From contig JBDRED010000002.1 of NCBI GenBank assembly GCA_043820025.1, forward strand, positions 1-28,595: 28,595 nucleotides of DNA, written 5' to 3'. Below are positions 6,916 through 28,595 of the stretch, piece by piece. The translations under genes were made by a program, and so were the position numbers. Under the pieces are notes generated by a model. That model was not told the DNA's origin, made no database searches, and saw only the letters and a program-made list of their open reading frames with translations. The DNA is from JBDRED01 sp043820025 [NCBI: Elusimicrobiota bacterium]. GTDB taxonomy: Bacteria; RUG730; JBDRED01. Each line of letters starts with the position of its first letter. Positions within the stretch are counted from its first letter, which is position 1.

Positions 6916-6927
6916 TTGGGGGATTGT

Positions 6928-8334
6928 ATGAGAAGATTTAGTGCGATAATATTACTTTTAATATTTTTGAATACCGCTCTTCTTCATGCTGATTTCACAA
7001 GGAATGATATTGGCACGCGCGGAGCCGAGTTTTTGAAGATGGGAGCAGGAAGCCGCGCCGCTGCTATGGGCAATGCGCAGGTCGGTTTGACCGATGATGT
7101 AAATGCAATATACTGGAATCCGGCAGGCCTTAATCATATAAATCAGAAAGAGTTTGCATTTATGCACTGTATGTGGTTTGAAGAGATAAGTTATCAGTAT
7201 CTCGCGTATGCTCAACCCCTGGGAAAGGCAAGGCTTGCAGGATCAGTTTATTATTTAAGTATGTCTCCTATGGATAAATACGATAAGTCAGGCGTGTATT
7301 TAAACGAATCATTCGCTCCGGCTGATATGGCAATAGCTCTCGCGTATGCGAATAAAATAAAAAAATTATTGTACGGGTTTAGTGTTAAATATATTTCGAG
7401 TAAGATTGAAGACGAGAGCGCTGCAGCTTATGCAGGGGATATAGGCATTCAATATCCTTTGGTTAAAGATAAAATTAACGCGGGATTGGTATTGCAGAAT
7501 ATAGGAAACAACTTAAAATATATACAAGAATCTACATTACTGCCGTTTAATATTAAGCTGGGGATTGCGTATATGCTGGACATAAAAAAAGACAGGCTAA
7601 TTTTTCTTGCAGATATTAATGCGCCTATTGACGATGAATTAGCGATAAATCTTGGAGCCGAGTATTCGCGCAGATTCGCTAATGGATATAGATTAAGCCC
7701 AAGAATCGGAGTAAGAACTAAATTAAATTCGAATATTAACAGTTTATTTAATATGAGCCCAAAGGTCGGGAGTAATAATACCGACGGAGAACTTGACGGT
7801 TTAAAGGATGTTACAGCCGGGCTGGGTTTTGCGTACAGAGGATCGAATATTGATTACGCGTGGGCGCCTTTTGGCGAGCTTGGATCTACTCACAAATTTT
7901 CAATAATGTTTAAATTTGGGGAATATCATGATGTTATTGTTCCGGTTGATAAGTATTTTTATAAAGACTATTCCAGAGAAGTCGAATTCTATAAGGGGAC
8001 TGTCCCCGAATGGGGACTGTCCCCTAAAGAAAGAGAACAAATAAGGGCGAAATTAAGAATAAAGTCCGAAAATAGAATGGAAAAACTAAGAATAAAAAGG
8101 GATAAAATATTAGCTGATTTTAGAAGAAAAGCTGAGAGAATAAGAGCTAAATTAGCTAAACAGTTAGGCGCAGGGACTGTCCCTGAACAGGAGCTGTCCC
8201 CTCTGGAAGACGAAAAAGCAGATATGGGGACTGTCCCTGAAGAGGGACTGTCCCATCTGGAAGACGAAAAAGCAGATATGGGGACTGTCCCTGAACAGGG
8301 ACTGTCCCCTCTGAGAAAAGGAGCAAAGCAATGA
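6928..8334 (+). CDS. PorV/PorQ-family outer-membrane barrel with repeat-derived C-terminal tail
   Basis: A signal peptide (MRRFSAIILLLIFLNTALLHA) is followed by the PorV/PorQ-family signature: GAEFLKMGAGSRAAAMGNAQVGLTDD is the recognisable segment, then AIYWNPAGL. Long amphipathic beta segments follow to about 'IMFKFG'. PorV is the outer-membrane shuttle that collects CTD-bearing cargo in the type IX system; other family members have unknown roles. I chose ATG 6928 because GGGGGA lies four bases upstream; a TTG at 6916 in frame is an alternative. After the barrel comes a charged helix (KEREQIRAKLRIKSENRMEK and on), then 18-residue repeats of the form GTVPEQGLSPLEDEKADM, which encode the GGGACTGTCCC repeat family. 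The tail is therefore probably a recent, family-atypical addition. The last codons overlap the next gene by four bases (ATGA). Confidence 0.82.
   Translation: MRRFSAIILLLIFLNTALLHADFTRNDIGTRGAEFLKMGAGSRAAAMGNAQVGLTDDVNAIYWNPAGLNHINQKEFAFMHCMWFEEISYQYLAYAQPLGKARLAGSVYYLSMSPMDKYDKSGVYLNESFAPADMAIALAYANKIKKLLYGFSVKYISSKIEDESAAAYAGDIGIQYPLVKDKINAGLVLQNIGNNLKYIQESTLLPFNIKLGIAYMLDIKKDRLIFLADINAPIDDELAINLGAEYSRRFANGYRLSPRIGVRTKLNSNINSLFNMSPKVGSNNTDGELDGLKDVTAGLGFAYRGSNIDYAWAPFGELGSTHKFSIMFKFGEYHDVIVPVDKYFYKDYSREVEFYKGTVPEWGLSPKEREQIRAKLRIKSENRMEKLRIKRDKILADFRRKAERIRAKLAKQLGAGTVPEQELSPLEDEKADMGTVPEEGLSHLEDEKADMGTVPEQGLSPLRKGAKQ
7995..8024 (+). repeat. GGGACTGTCCC-family element inside CDS
   Basis: Two GGGGACTGTCCCC units, 17 bases apart, sit in frame in the PorV-like gene and are read as GTVPEWGLSP. 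The same pair occurs between genes elsewhere in the window, so this is a repeat translated in place. Confidence 0.8.
8173..8310 (+). repeat. In-frame 54-bp tandem repeat of the GGGACTGTCCC family (about 2.6 copies)
   Basis: Units start at 8173, 8227 and 8281, a period of 54 bases, which is 18 codons (GTVPEQ-LSPLEDEKADM). Each unit contains two near-palindromic GGGACTGTCC cores and a spacer containing 'gaagacgaaaaa', which is related to the 'gaagtcgaaaaa' of the intergenic copies at 26366 and 28408. The intergenic array has a 56-base period instead. Confidence 0.85.
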
Positions 8335-25591: not shown

Positions 25592-26347
25592 ATGGCAGAA
25601 CAAAGAAGGCTTATAAAGAAAAATACAAAACCTAATACAAAACGGCAGGGAGCAGACAAGGAATTATTAGGCGCTCTCACCAAGATAAGCGAAGCTATAA
25701 CATCTGACTTGTATGTTGAAGATATTTTAAAGCTTTTGGTCACTATTACAGCAGAGGTTATGGGTTCGAAAATCTGCTCGCTTATGCTGCTGGATCCTAA
25801 AAAAAATGAATTAGAGGTGCGCGCGACTCAGTCAGTAAGCGAGGAATATAATAAAAAGCCGAATATTAAACTTGGGCAGGGTATTGCGGGAATAGTTGCT
25901 GAAACAGGCCGGCCTATTGCAGTTTACGACTTAAAGAAAGATCCCAGGTATTTGAATGTAGGTATTGCGGCTAAGGAAAAATTAATTTCTTTGCTTTCAG
26001 TGCCTTTGATAGTTAAGAAGAAAATAATAGGTGTTTTAAATTGTTATACTGAAAAGCCTCATAAGTTCAGCGATAATGAAATCACAATTTTAAAATCTGT
26101 GGCAAACCAGGCGGCTATTGTTATTGAAAACTTCAGGCTGGTTGTGGAATCAAGGGTTATAAAGGAAGAGCTTGAATCGCGAAAGATGATAGAACGCGCA
26201 AAAGGCATACTTATGAAACAGCGTAAGTTTACCGAAGAAGAGGCGTATAATCATATTCGAAAATTTAGTATGGATAATAGAAAAACAATGCGTGAGATAG
26301 CTGAGGCAATAGTCTTAAACGCGGATATGAATGACGCCTTAAAATAA
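25592..26347 (+). CDS. GAF-ANTAR transcription antiterminator
   Basis: 251 residues. A short basic N-terminus precedes a GAF domain (about 26-190: ALTKISEAITSDLYVEDIL, LGQGIAGIVAETGRPIAVYD, SLLSVPLIVKKKIIGVLNCY, ANQAAIVIENF). A helical linker leads to an ANTAR domain (about 190-245: KMIERAKGILMKQRKFTEEE, then AYNHIRKFSMDNRKTMREIAEAIV). ANTAR proteins bind pairs of RNA hairpins with six-base loops and prevent terminator formation; the GAF domain would provide the signal, which cannot be read from sequence. No receiver domain or histidine kinase is nearby. A matching RNA target, in two tandem copies, lies at 28205-28404. AGGGAG precedes the ATG by nine bases. Cotranscribed with the GyrI-like gene, which might take part in sensing. 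Confidence 0.9.
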   Translation: MAEQRRLIKKNTKPNTKRQGADKELLGALTKISEAITSDLYVEDILKLLVTITAEVMGSKICSLMLLDPKKNELEVRATQSVSEEYNKKPNIKLGQGIAGIVAETGRPIAVYDLKKDPRYLNVGIAAKEKLISLLSVPLIVKKKIIGVLNCYTEKPHKFSDNEITILKSVANQAAIVIENFRLVVESRVIKEELESRKMIERAKGILMKQRKFTEEEAYNHIRKFSMDNRKTMREIAEAIVLNADMNDALK

Positions 26348-26365: not shown

Positions 26366-26440
26366 CCCGGGACTGTCACTGAATAGGGACTGTCCTCTGC
26401 GAGAAGTCGAAAAAATCAGGTAAGGGGACTGTCCCCTCCG
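26366..26440. repeat. GGGACTGTCCC-family element between the ANTAR and NAD synthetase genes
   Basis: Three cores (GGGACTGTC at 26370 and 26386, and GGGGACTGTCCCC at 26424-26436) with the spacer 'gagaagtcgaaaaaa'. The same unit forms the tandem array at 28408. It fills most of the 113-base gap; no separate promoter is seen. Confidence 0.8.
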
Positions 26441-26460
26441 AGATCATAGGTAAATGTTTA

Positions 26461-28158
26461 ATGACCAAAAAATCTAAAATACTCAGAATAGCCTGCGCTC
26501 AGATAGACGTTACTGTTGGCGATCTTCAAGAGAATTCTAAAAAAATAATCAGCGCGATTCAAAAAGCTAAAAACGAAAAAGCAGATCTCATTGTTTTTCC
26601 TGAATGTATTATATCCGGCTATCCGCCGGAAGATCTAATGCATAAAGGGCATTTTGTAAGAGATGTGAAAAATGCGGCAGACAAAATCACAAAAGAAACA
26701 CAAGGTATTACAGCTGTAATAGGATGCGTATATCCTGATCATGATGGAAAGGCGTATAATTCCGCGGTTATTTATAATAATGGCAGATTAATAGACGTGT
26801 ATAATAAACACGAGCTTCCAAATTATGGAGTTTTCGACGAGAACAGATACTTTACTGAAGGCGGTAAAAAGATTGTTTTTGAAAAGGATGGTTTTTGTTT
26901 TGGAGTCACTATATGCGAAGATATTTGGGTAAAAAATGGGCCGTATATTGATTTAGCAAAAGCAGGCGCTGATTTAATTTTAAATATTTCAGCCTCGCCT
27001 TATTACGCCGGCAAGATGAATATTCGTTATGATATTGCGAAAGAATGCGCTAAGACAGCAAAGACATATTTATGTTATTGTAATATGATTGGCGGCCAGG
27101 ACGAACTCGTTTTTGACGGTGGAAGCTTTGTGATGAATCCTCAAGGAATTGTAATATCAAGCGCTAAGGAATTTGAAGAGGATTTATTGATTACCGATAT
27201 TCCTTTAATGAGAAAAAAACCTAAAAAATACGGCAAGGTGGTTATTAAACATTTATTAGGAACTGTTTTAGAAAAAAAACCTGTGAAACCCAAAAAATTT
27301 AAGAGATCTTCAGAGGTTGAAGAAATATATAAGGCATTAGTTTTAGGCGCGCGCGATTATGCGCGGAAGAACGGTTTTCAAAAAGCTGTAATGGGCCTAA
27401 GCGGCGGCATTGACAGCGCGCTTGTCGCAAAGATTGCTGTTGACGCGCTTAGCAGTGAAAATGTTATTTGTGTGTCTATGCCCTCTAAATATTCGTCAAA
27501 AGGAACACAATCTGACGCAAGAAAACTGGCAAAAAACCTGGATGTAAATTTTTTTGAAATACCTATTGAAAAAACATTTACAGCTTATATGGAAATGCTG
27601 GATAAAATGTTTAAATGCGCGAAACCAAATATAGCTGAGGAGAATCTTCAGGCAAGGATAAGAGGCAATACTCTAATGGCTCTTTCTAATAAATTCGGAT
27701 GGCTGGTGCTTAGCACGGGCAATAAGAGCGAAACAGCTGTTGGTTATACAACGCTTTACGGCGATATGGCTGGCGGTTTTGCTGTGATAAAAGATGTTAA
27801 AAAAACATTAGTTTATAAATTAGCCGAGTATGTTAATACAAAATCAAAAGCAATGTGCATTCCGTTGAGTGTTATAAAAAGAGCTCCGAGCGCTGAATTA
27901 AGGTTTAATCAGAAGGACCAGGATTCGCTCCCTGCTTACGATATCTTAGATAGTATTTTATCAGCTTATGTTGAGCGTGATATGAGAAGATATGATATAA
28001 GGGTGAAAGGCGCTTCTTCAGAAGAAATTAGTAATGTTGTTAATTTGGTTGATAAGAATGAATACAAAAGAAGGCAGGCTCCGCCCGGGATAAAGATAAC
28101 TCCAAAGGCATTTGGCAGGGACAGAAGAATGCCCATAACAAACGGGTACAAAGATTAA
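26461..28158 (+). CDS. nadE: Glutamine-dependent NAD+ synthetase
   Basis: 565 residues, the usual size of the two-domain enzyme. The N-terminal nitrilase-type glutaminase has the catalytic triad Glu48 (VFPE), Lys116 (KHELPNYGVFDENRY) and Cys152 (TICEDIW). The C-terminal synthetase has the PP-loop GLSGGIDSA (312-320), then STGNKSETAVGYTTLYGDMAGG and the 'RxPSAELR' region. It converts nicotinate adenine dinucleotide to NAD+ with ammonia released from glutamine and tunnelled between domains. It acts in the cytoplasm. The ribosome site is weak (TAGG about ten bases upstream), and ATG 26461 agrees with the family start. The gene follows the GAF-ANTAR regulator and precedes a tandem ANTAR attenuator, which hints at a nitrogen- or glutamine-linked locus. 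Confidence 0.95.
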   Translation: MTKKSKILRIACAQIDVTVGDLQENSKKIISAIQKAKNEKADLIVFPECIISGYPPEDLMHKGHFVRDVKNAADKITKETQGITAVIGCVYPDHDGKAYNSAVIYNNGRLIDVYNKHELPNYGVFDENRYFTEGGKKIVFEKDGFCFGVTICEDIWVKNGPYIDLAKAGADLILNISASPYYAGKMNIRYDIAKECAKTAKTYLCYCNMIGGQDELVFDGGSFVMNPQGIVISSAKEFEEDLLITDIPLMRKKPKKYGKVVIKHLLGTVLEKKPVKPKKFKRSSEVEEIYKALVLGARDYARKNGFQKAVMGLSGGIDSALVAKIAVDALSSENVICVSMPSKYSSKGTQSDARKLAKNLDVNFFEIPIEKTFTAYMEMLDKMFKCAKPNIAEENLQARIRGNTLMALSNKFGWLVLSTGNKSETAVGYTTLYGDMAGGFAVIKDVKKTLVYKLAEYVNTKSKAMCIPLSVIKRAPSAELRFNQKDQDSLPAYDILDSILSAYVERDMRRYDIRVKGASSEEISNVVNLVDKNEYKRRQAPPGIKITPKAFGRDRRMPITNGYKD

Positions 28159-28167
28159 AAAAAATTC

Positions 28168-28195
28168 TTGTAAAATATTGAAATATATATATAAT
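28168..28195 (+). promoter_or_regulatory. Promoter of the ANTAR-controlled leader RNA
   Basis: TTGTAA (28168-28173), 16-base spacer, TATAAT (28190-28195), placing +1 near 28202, three bases before the first hairpin. It begins ten bases after the nadE stop codon. Confidence 0.65.
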
Positions 28196-28204
28196 AATAA
28201 ACAA

Positions 28205-28253
28205 GTACACGCATAATGAAGTGCGCGTATCTTTCAAACAAGGATGTTTTAAG
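28205..28253 (+). promoter_or_regulatory. ANTAR dual-hexaloop antiterminator, unit 1
   Basis: Hairpin 1: GTACACGCAT (28205-28214) with GTGCGCGTAT (28221-28230), one A-C mismatch, six-base loop AATGAA (28215-28220). Hairpin 2: CTTTCAAAC region (28232-28239) with GTTTTAAG (28246-28253), one C-U mismatch, loop AAGGAT (28240-28245). Both loops have A at position 1 and G at position 4, the conserved ANTAR recognition bases. Hairpin 2 uses bases needed by the terminator's 5' arm, so the two structures exclude each other. It could only be chance if loop identity, pair spacing and terminator overlap all coincided. Confidence 0.78.
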
Positions 28254-28283
28254 AAGATATTTTCTTAAAACATCCTTTTTTTT
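28240..28283 (+). terminator. Intrinsic terminator of ANTAR unit 1
   Basis: GGATGTTTTAAGAA (28242-28255) pairs perfectly with TTCTTAAAACATCC (28262-28275) around a six-base loop, followed by eight T (28276-28283). Premature stop here would release an RNA of about 82 bases. Confidence 0.9.
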
Positions 28284-28292
28284 ATGCAAAAA

Positions 28293-28370
28293 CACCTTGA
28301 TAATAAAGACGTTTTCAAGGGTGAAAGATAAAAGCCGTTATACGGCTTGAAAACAGGACAAAGGCGTTCT
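28293..28370 (+). promoter_or_regulatory. ANTAR dual-hexaloop antiterminator, unit 2
   Basis: Hairpin 1: CACCTTGATAAT (28293-28304) with GTTTTCAAGGGTG (28311-28323), one U-U mismatch and one bulged G, loop AAAGAC (28305-28310). Hairpin 2: AGGAC (28355-28359) with GTTCT (28366-28370), loop AAAGGC (28360-28365). Both loops again have A1 and G4. Between them is a small hairpin AAGCCGT / ACGGCTT (28332-28348). Hairpin 2 overlaps the 5' arm of the second terminator. No separate promoter is visible between the units, so both appear to act on one transcript in series. Confidence 0.7.
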
Positions 28371-28404
28371 ATATATTATAGTAGATATATAGGGCGCTTT
28401 TTTT
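28364..28404 (+). terminator. Intrinsic terminator of ANTAR unit 2
   Basis: GCGTTCTATATAT (28364-28376) pairs with ATATATAGGGCGC (28385-28397), 13 pairs including two U-G, loop of eight bases, followed by seven T (28398-28404). Its sequence is unrelated to terminator 1. Confidence 0.88.
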
Positions 28405-28407
28405 ATA

Positions 28408-28595
28408 GGGACTGTCCCCTCAGAGAAGTCGAAAAAACTAGTCACGGGGACTGTCACTGAATAGGGACTGTCCCCTCAGAGAAGTCGAAAAAACTAGTCA
28501 CGGGGACTGTCACTGAATAGGGACTGTCCCCTCAGAGAAGTCGAAAAAACTAGTCACGGGGACTGTCACTGAATAGGGACTGTCCCCTCAGAGAA
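28408..28595. repeat. 56-bp tandem array of the GGGACTGTCCC family, running off the window
   Basis: Units begin at 28408, 28464, 28520 and 28576, with no difference seen between complete units. Each holds GGGACTGTCCCC, 'tcagagaagtcgaaaaaacta', and GGGGACTGTCACTGAATA. There are no variable spacers, so it is not CRISPR. It lies between the ANTAR attenuators and whatever gene they control. No open frame is seen. Confidence 0.92.

What the first reader, a model, noticed from the sequence alone, without database searches (positions are those of the whole stretch)
28168..28404. Two ANTAR attenuators in series after nadE
Seen: a promoter, then two units, each with two hairpins whose six-base loops are AATGAA, AAGGAT, AAAGAC and AAAGGC. 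All four have A1 and G4. In both units the second hairpin overlaps the 5' arm of a strong terminator with a T-run. Established: ANTAR proteins bind paired hexaloop hairpins with A1 and G4 and thereby block terminators. Inference: this is a double-gated ANTAR switch. Single dual-hexaloop leaders are known; two complete, sequence-unrelated units in tandem on one transcript would give AND-like or steep control, and I do not know of a described example.
Basis: partly seen in the sequence, partly recalled or inferred. Interest (0 to 1): 0.88.

Follow-up and report, generated by a model that had tools for sequence, protein, structure and literature searches.

The report
Two ANTAR-gated terminators in series
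Behind an RNA-binding regulator gene and nadE, this uncultured bacterium carries an RNA leader with two transcription stop signals in a row, each built so that the regulator could open it; some relatives carry similar multi-gate leaders before nitrogen genes, a layout I found no published description of.

Summary
At 28168-28404 a promoter-like site is followed by two strong terminators (28240-28277, 28360-28401, about -20 kcal/mol each). Each 5' arm overlaps a hexaloop hairpin with A1 and G4 (AAGGAT, AAAGGC) and each has another A1/G4 hexaloop hairpin upstream (AATGAA, AAAGAC). A GAF-ANTAR gene keeping EutV's RNA-contact residues (one K to R) lies upstream of nadE. In 88 loci, most from the phylum of a record titled Omnitrophota, plus the window, A1/G4 is the commonest letter pair in hexaloops overlapping intergenic terminators (70 of 341; the other 15 pairs 6-20) and occurs before nitrogen genes: the ANTAR gene itself, nadE, amtB, glnA, GSIII, gdhA, gltB, PII. 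Seven relatives have two or more such gates in one leader (one has three); all other letter pairs together give one case. A covariance model built without the window ranks gate 2 first in the window, but scores unit 1 poorly. Its first hairpin is non-canonical and 32 nt away, and downstream gates in relatives mostly lack their own first hairpin. AND logic is untested; both gates probably obey one protein. The regulated gene lies beyond the contig end.

The parts
25592..26347 (+). GAF-ANTAR regulator gene (251 aa), presumed trans-acting antiterminator
   Evidence: Pfam ANTAR 6e-22, GAF_2 8e-24; EutV residues R142, K143, K147, Y164, M172 align to R197, K198, R202, Y219, M227
26461..28158 (+). 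nadE, NAD synthetase with CN_hydrolase domain
   Evidence: Pfam; ANTAR directly before nadE recurs in relatives
28168..28195 (+). promoter-like site TTGTAA-16-TATAAT
   Evidence: 10 of 12 consensus matches; no more frequent than in shuffles
28205..28230 (+). unit 1 first hairpin P1a, hexaloop AATGAA (28215-28220)
   Evidence: shuffle p 0.0002; resembles the relatives' gcac-A..G..-gtgc hairpin
28236..28249 (+). unit 1 second hairpin P2a, hexaloop AAGGAT (28240-28245), overlaps terminator 1
28240..28283 (+). terminator 1 (hairpin 28240-28277, -19.4 kcal/mol) and T-run
28292..28322 (+). candidate unit 2 first hairpin P1b, hexaloop AAAGAC (28305-28310)
   Evidence: MFE fold; shuffle p 0.005; its apex weakly matched by model R1 at 28302-28313, 6.2 bits, E 2.9
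28332..28348 (+). extra hairpin in the unit 2 linker, not an A1/G4 hexaloop
   Evidence: MFE fold
28355..28370 (+). unit 2 second hairpin P2b, hexaloop AAAGGC (28360-28365), overlaps terminator 2
   Evidence: best match of model R1 in the whole window, 28323-28369, 20.6 bits, E 0.0007
28360..28404 (+). terminator 2 (hairpin 28360-28401, -20.0 kcal/mol) and T-run

Best explanation
It is a leader RNA of an ANTAR antitermination regulon for nitrogen assimilation in an Omnitrophota-like bacterium, with two ANTAR-gated intrinsic terminators in series. RNA polymerase starts near 28202. If the GAF-ANTAR protein is inactive, terminator 1 forms and most transcripts end at about 28283; those that escape meet terminator 2 and end at about 28404. 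If the protein is active (as a dimer, its GAF domain sensing a nitrogen-related signal), it binds A1/G4 hexaloop hairpins, stabilises P2a and then P2b, keeps their bases out of the terminator 5' arms, and polymerase reads on into a downstream gene that is off the contig. Two gates multiply: basal read-through is the product of two leak rates. Shown: anatomy, conserved RNA-contact residues, loop-letter enrichment, gates before nitrogen genes and serial gates in relatives. Inferred: transcription start, binding, termination, signal, target gene, and whether unit 2 uses its own P1b or the protein passes from the 5' hairpin to each P2 in turn.
For: Anatomy. ANTAR gene and contact residues (over 86 homologues, window included, R 85/K 1, K 86, R 72/K 13/H 1, Y 54/F 32, M 86). 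Among 341 intergenic terminators of 89 sequences, hexaloop hairpins overlapping the 5' arm have A1/G4 in 70, other letter pairs 6-20; without the window and at other cut-offs A1/G4 is 6 to 10 times the mean of the others. Clusters with two or more gates of the same letter pair: A/G 8 (window plus 7 relatives), all others together 1. Genes of the nitrogen classes have an A1/G4 gate upstream in 49 of 147 cases, other genes in 3 of 195; two or more upstream terminators in 33 of 147 against 8 of 195. Pfam names of targets. Model R1, built from 16 relatives' pairs without the window, ranks P2b first in the window (E 0.0007). Serial leaders printed.
Against: No close relative: the best listed DNA matches to the region are 66-70% over a few hundred bases of ANTAR or nadE and none of the listed ones covers the leader, so this leader itself has no covariation test. 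Unit 1 scores only 4.3 bits (E 8.6) with R1. P2a has 4 contiguous pairs; if 5 are required only one relative (L087) keeps two gates, none at -14 kcal/mol, and the window would fail too. P1b is 32 nt from P2b. In a cruder count (at least 4 pairs) A1/G4 leads among upstream hairpins of first gates only narrowly (17 of 51 against 14 for T/T with six-base loops, 15 against 14 for A/T with seven) and not at all before downstream gates (3 of 19, T/A also 3). R1 also hits 4 of 20 genomes without the ANTAR relative at E <= 0.05, against 11 of 20 with it (at 30 bits or more 0 against 4). Gene classes were partly chosen because some members had gates, and an upstream terminator may belong to the preceding gene. 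Downstream gene unknown; no RNA or binding data.
Confidence: 0.77

Rival explanations
1. One working ANTAR gate plus one plain terminator: only one unit answers the protein; the other terminator is a leftover or insulator whose hexaloop is coincidence.
For: Each P2 alone is not improbable (3-12% by shuffling); unit 1 fits the relatives' model poorly and unit 2 has a distant, non-canonical P1; in most relatives' three-terminator clusters not every terminator has an A1/G4 gate.
Against: Seven relatives have two or more A1/G4 gates in one leader and all other letter pairs together give one such cluster; P2b matches the relatives' consensus AGGACAAAGGCGTTC.
Confidence: 0.12
2. A stand-alone small RNA that ties up the ANTAR protein, in the manner of EutX/Rli55, with no gene to regulate downstream.
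For: Own promoter-like site and terminators; the 191 bases left after 28404 are a 56-bp repeat array, so no gene is seen.
Against: In relatives such leaders sit directly before nitrogen genes, and after nadE they precede a sigma-like gene or amtB; in L095 a further leader before a porin gene follows.
Confidence: 0.1
3. Back-to-back ordinary terminators closing the ANTAR-nadE operon; hexaloops by chance.
For: Two or more terminators occur before unrelated genes too (8 of 195), and three-terminator clusters without any A1/G4 gate exist.
Against: All four loops carry A1/G4, P1a p 0.0002 and P1b p 0.005, and the loop-letter enrichment in relatives.
Confidence: 0.03

Closest known systems
EutV/eutP-type dual-hexaloop ANTAR attenuators of Enterococcus faecalis (PMC3369931; structure paper PMC8934654)
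   Same: Paired hexaloop hairpins with A1/G4, second hairpin inside the terminator 5' arm; same ANTAR contact residues. The eut operon has four such terminators in all.
   Different: In eut they lie upstream of different genes (eutP, eutG, eutS, eutA); here two stand in one leader about 80 nt apart, and the sensor domain is GAF, not a phosphorylated receiver.
NasR/nasF and AmiR/amiE leaders (as described in the sections of PMC3369931 that I read)
   Same: ANTAR antitermination through two hexaloop hairpins.
   Different: No second gate is described in the text read.
Predicted ANTAR regulons of Pelobacter carbinolicus (nitrogenase) and Desulfotomaculum reducens (glutamate synthase), PMC3369931 section 10, part 1 of 2
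   Same: Several ANTAR leaders across nitrogen genes of one genome.
   Different: The text read does not describe serial gates in one leader; other phyla.
Tandem riboswitches with two expression platforms (recalled; the paper search gave nothing useful)
   Same: Two attenuators in series on one leader giving steeper or combined control.
   Different: Ligand-binding RNA rather than protein-bound hexaloops.

Membership tests
ANTAR dual-hexaloop attenuator | ANTAR-domain protein encoded in the genome | tested here: met
   25592-26347, Pfam ANTAR 6e-22
ANTAR dual-hexaloop attenuator | protein keeps the RNA-contact residues of EutV | tested here: met
   R142, K143, Y164, M172 identical; K147 is R (residues named in PMC8934654)
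ANTAR dual-hexaloop attenuator | two hairpins with six-base loops, at least 3 pairs each | tested here: met
   both units; P1b has 3 pairs next to the loop, then a mismatch
ANTAR dual-hexaloop attenuator | A at loop position 1 and G at position 4 | tested here: met
   4 of 4 loops
ANTAR dual-hexaloop attenuator | linker of 2-25 nt between the hairpins (range of PMC8164766) | tested here: inconclusive
   unit 1: 5 nt, met; unit 2: 32 nt with a 17-nt hairpin inside, not met, so unit 2 is filed only as working like such an attenuator
ANTAR dual-hexaloop attenuator | second hairpin and an intrinsic terminator are mutually exclusive | tested here: met
   both units: terminator starts at the first base of the P2 loop
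ANTAR dual-hexaloop attenuator | conservation in relatives | tested here: inconclusive
   motif class recurs in relatives; no relative alignable to this leader was found
ANTAR dual-hexaloop attenuator | protein binding and antitermination | not testable with these tools
   needs binding and transcription assays
Any Rfam family | match at the curated score | tested here: not met
   0 matches in the window at gathering scores; the 19 sub-threshold matches on 28150-28420 all lie well below their gathering scores
EutX/Rli55-type ANTAR-sequestering RNA | no regulated gene downstream | tested here: inconclusive
   the window ends in a repeat array 191 bases after terminator 2

The most novel reading that the evidence does not exclude
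Omnitrophota use multi-gate ANTAR leaders as a recurrent design: one recruitment hexaloop at the RNA 5' end followed by two, sometimes three, P2/terminator gates, so that one protein (or a train of dimers) must be handed from hexaloop to hexaloop, giving very tight, steep control of nitrogen genes and of the ANTAR genes themselves. This would extend the P1-then-P2 model proposed for EutV from one gate to a processive relay.
Probability: 0.33. Interest if true: 0.8.

Novelty: new variant of a known kind. Interest (0 to 1): 0.62.

Why it matters
The ANTAR leaders described in what I read carry one gate each. A group of bacteria with two or more gates per leader is a natural experiment on how an RNA-binding antiterminator works: the EutV structure paper argues that a dimer binds one hexaloop at a time and moves from P1 to P2, and serial gates with a single P1 would test that directly. 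It also points to an RNA-based nitrogen control circuit (ammonium transport, glutamine and glutamate synthesis, PII, NAD synthetase, ANTAR autoregulation) in an uncultured phylum. I saw no report of ANTAR there, but my look was limited: 15 of 541 listed papers, none of them on ANTAR in Omnitrophota by title, and no whole word ANTAR in the one Omnitrophota genome survey I searched.

Tried and rejected
Rfam: no family at gathering score; sub-threshold matches (for example sau-5971 at 28 bits against a cut-off of 90) were taken as generic terminator similarity.

Close relatives: no whole genome is held for the window. Searches of 384 genomes of the phylum gave at best 69% (ANTAR) and 59% (NadE) protein identity among the listed matches, and DNA matches of 64-78% over short stretches, none of the listed ones over the leader. 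A direct alignment of this leader was abandoned.

That downstream gates have their own canonical P1 was tested and is not general: 3 of 19 with A1/G4 (L104, L105 and the window; expected 0.5 by shuffling) against 20 of 51 first or only gates (window included; expected 4.4). The rule (loop 6 or 7, score 5) was set after seeing the leaders, and the intervals before downstream gates are shorter (mean 29 nt against 55), so the raw fractions are biased; relative to shuffles both sets are enriched. The cruder count shows only a narrow lead for A1/G4.

A separate promoter for unit 2: the scan found only a 9-of-12 site at 28355-28382, overlapping gate 2; not credible.

Literature: ANTAR with tandem and hexaloop gave 0 papers; ANTAR with Elusimicrobia 1 paper; ANTAR with tandem, double or multiple terminators 30 papers, 15 listed, none on ANTAR leaders by title; Omnitrophota/Omnitrophica 541, 15 listed; GnfR 38, 10 listed, none holding the word GnfR; tandem riboswitch terms 1; EutX 4; first ANTAR search 85, 20 listed. 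I saw no description of two ANTAR gates in one leader in these. The library holds open-licence papers only. Seen: PMC3369931 passages, section 7 and section 10 part 1 of 2; PMC8164766 passages; PMC8934654 passages, section 20 and section 26 part 1 of 2; PMC3369936 passages; PMC10066038 term search without hits; others in listings only.

Not done: structure prediction, fold search, scans of viral contigs.

Full report
Observation. A TTGTAA-16-TATAAT site ends at 28195 (not rarer than expected by chance). P1a (28205-28230) closes loop AATGAA, P2a (28236-28249) AAGGAT, P1b (28292-28322) AAAGAC, P2b (28355-28370) AAAGGC; all four have A1 and G4. Two terminator hairpins, 28240-28277 (-19.4 kcal/mol) and 28360-28401 (-20.0 kcal/mol), each begin at the first base of the P2 loop and run into T-runs. 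P1a and P2a are 5 nt apart; P1b and P2b 32 nt, with a 17-nt hairpin between. Shuffling gives p 0.0002 for P1a, 0.0054 for P1b, and 0.03-0.12 for the two P2 hairpins given their terminators.

Regulator. Upstream lie a GAF-ANTAR gene (25592-26347) and nadE (26461-28158). The ANTAR domain matches three PDB chains by sequence, 6wsh, 1s8n and 4akk (I recall these as EutV, Rv1626 and NasR, and 6WW6, listed with 6wsh, is EutV in PMC8934654). With a two-residue offset that puts R142, K143, K147, Y164 and M172 on the right letters of that chain (my inference), the window has R197, K198, R202, Y219, M227; among 86 homologues, window included, these columns are R 85/K 1, K 86, R 72/K 13/H 1, Y 54/F 32, M 86.

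Relatives. The genome of the window is not held. Of the ten best ANTAR matches in genome contigs, six are titled Candidatus Omnitrophota, two Clostridia, one Proteobacteria, one only 'bacterium'. ANTAR directly precedes nadE in many of the loci, as in the window. I fetched 80 regions and scanned them with 8 loci and the window: 89 sequences. L001 and L005 were dropped as duplicates; L011-L077, L118-L125 and L166-L175 were not scanned. Regions were chosen for high ANTAR or NadE similarity, not at random.

Loop letters. Among 341 intergenic terminators of -10 kcal/mol or better, a hexaloop hairpin of at least 4 contiguous pairs overlapping the 5' arm has A1/G4 in 70; the other fifteen letter pairs have 20 (T/G) to 6. 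The scan selects on pairing, not on loop letters. Without the window: 68 of 334 against a mean of 11.1; at -14 kcal/mol 61 of 229 against 7.9; with 5 pairs 40 against 5.1. Before restricting to intergenic terminators, at -9 kcal/mol, the excess was smaller (167 of 2887, next 107).

Serial gates. Of 46 clusters of two or more terminators, 8 (window and L087, L098, L099, L103, L105, L134, L142) contain at least two A1/G4 gates; all other letter pairs together give 1. With 5 contiguous pairs required only L087 remains, and none at -14 kcal/mol. Of 15 clusters with three terminators, L103 has three A1/G4 gates, L098, L099 and L105 two, L089, L090 and L147 one, and eight none. Several leaders printed (L087, L098, L099, L103, L105, L134) show the same plan: promoter-like stretch, a cac-A..G..-gtg hairpin, two or three P2/terminator gates, then the gene; others there (L142, L145, L147, L104) lack that first hairpin.

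Targets. The classes behind gates are, by Pfam on one representative each: ANTAR itself, NAD synthetase, ammonium transporter, glutamine synthetase I and III, glutamate dehydrogenase, glutamate synthase, PII, a class I glutamine amidotransferase, a beta-barrel porin-2 and a DHODB-like electron-transfer subunit, plus a sigma-like protein and a small porin-like protein without a Pfam match (names mine). Among genes with at least 80 nt upstream, these classes have an A1/G4 gate in 49 of 147 cases and other genes in 3 of 195; two or more upstream terminators in 33 of 147 against 8 of 195. The classes were named from clusters with gates, so this is descriptive, not independent, and a terminator may belong to the gene before it.

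Model. Sixteen P1-P2 pairs from relatives, selected for A1/G4 and pairing, align with further conservation (CAC...GTG in P1, CGT after the P2 loop); 8 of the 16 have a seven-base P1 loop. All 128 pair cells are standard, partly by selection; 4 cells change on both sides (1 of 500 shuffles as high) but in only two pairs (73 of 500). The model, built without the window, finds P2b as the best match in the window at E 0.0007, the P1b apex at 6.2 bits (E 2.9) and unit 1 at 28210-28249 at only 4.3 bits (E 8.6, twelfth of 15). Over 81 sources it finds 41 matches at E <= 0.01, 16 of them its training set. In 20 genomes with the ANTAR protein, not used for training, it hits 11 at E <= 0.05; in 20 without, 4; at 30 bits or more, 4 against 0; only 148 of the several hundred candidates per genome were scored. 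A Pfam ANTAR search of the latter 20 found none, but its control genomes did not ring either.

Mechanism. By the eut work (PMC3369931 sections 7 and 10 part 1; PMC8934654 passages and section 26 part 1) an ANTAR dimer stabilises P2 against the terminator, and a structure-based model has it bind P1 first and then move to P2, with a limit on the linker. Most gates that follow another terminator have little room for a P1 (mean interval 29 nt); 3 of 19 have an A1/G4 one (L104, L105, window), against 20 of 51 first or only gates. So a single 5' hairpin may serve several gates; this is inference. In the window P1a is the canonical one; P1b may or may not serve gate 2. Bases 28311-28319 (GTTTTCAAG) could also pair with 28346-28354 (CTTGAAAAC), which would break P1b and abut P2b; I have no explanation for this.

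Verdict. Very probably a serial ANTAR attenuator leader, a new variant of a known kind; the regulated gene and the behaviour of two gates remain to be shown.

Noticed in passing
window 28405-28595; similar stretches near 26370-26443 and at 8173-8313: A 56-bp direct repeat (3.4 identical copies, GGGACTGTCCCC core) runs from just after terminator 2 to the window end and may have broken the assembly; similar letters lie between ANTAR and nadE and inside the ORF at 6916-8334. A comparable GGGACGGTT repeat follows nadE in L138.
   Followed up: no
L089, L092, L098, L099, L100, L101, L103, L104, L105, L109, L113, L162: ANTAR genes themselves sit behind such leaders, several with three terminators. 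9 of these 12 loci come from genomes with two ANTAR matches at E <= 1e-50 (28 of 278 overall, counted by eye), suggesting autoregulation or a cascade of two ANTAR proteins.
   Followed up: partly
L117, L129, L132, L142, L143, L145, L158, between nadE and the next gene: A second leader class seen by eye: a ctc-RNNGNN-gag hairpin followed by a P2-like hairpin over a terminator, with a recurrent A.C mismatch in the P2 stem, mostly before a small sigma-like gene (amtB in L145).
   Followed up: no
L160:3308-3892, L117, L128, L129 and others: A sigma-factor-like protein of about 180 aa recurs after ANTAR-nadE; its representative in L160 has no Pfam family at E 1e-5.
   Followed up: no
window 28311-28319 and 28346-28354: Nine-base perfect complementarity that competes with P1b and with the linker hairpin and ends directly before P2b; unexplained (sequence).
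   Followed up: no
alignment A2: In 8 of 16 relatives' pairs the first hairpin has a seven-base loop (A1, G4), not six as in the ANTAR targets described in what I read.
   Followed up: partly
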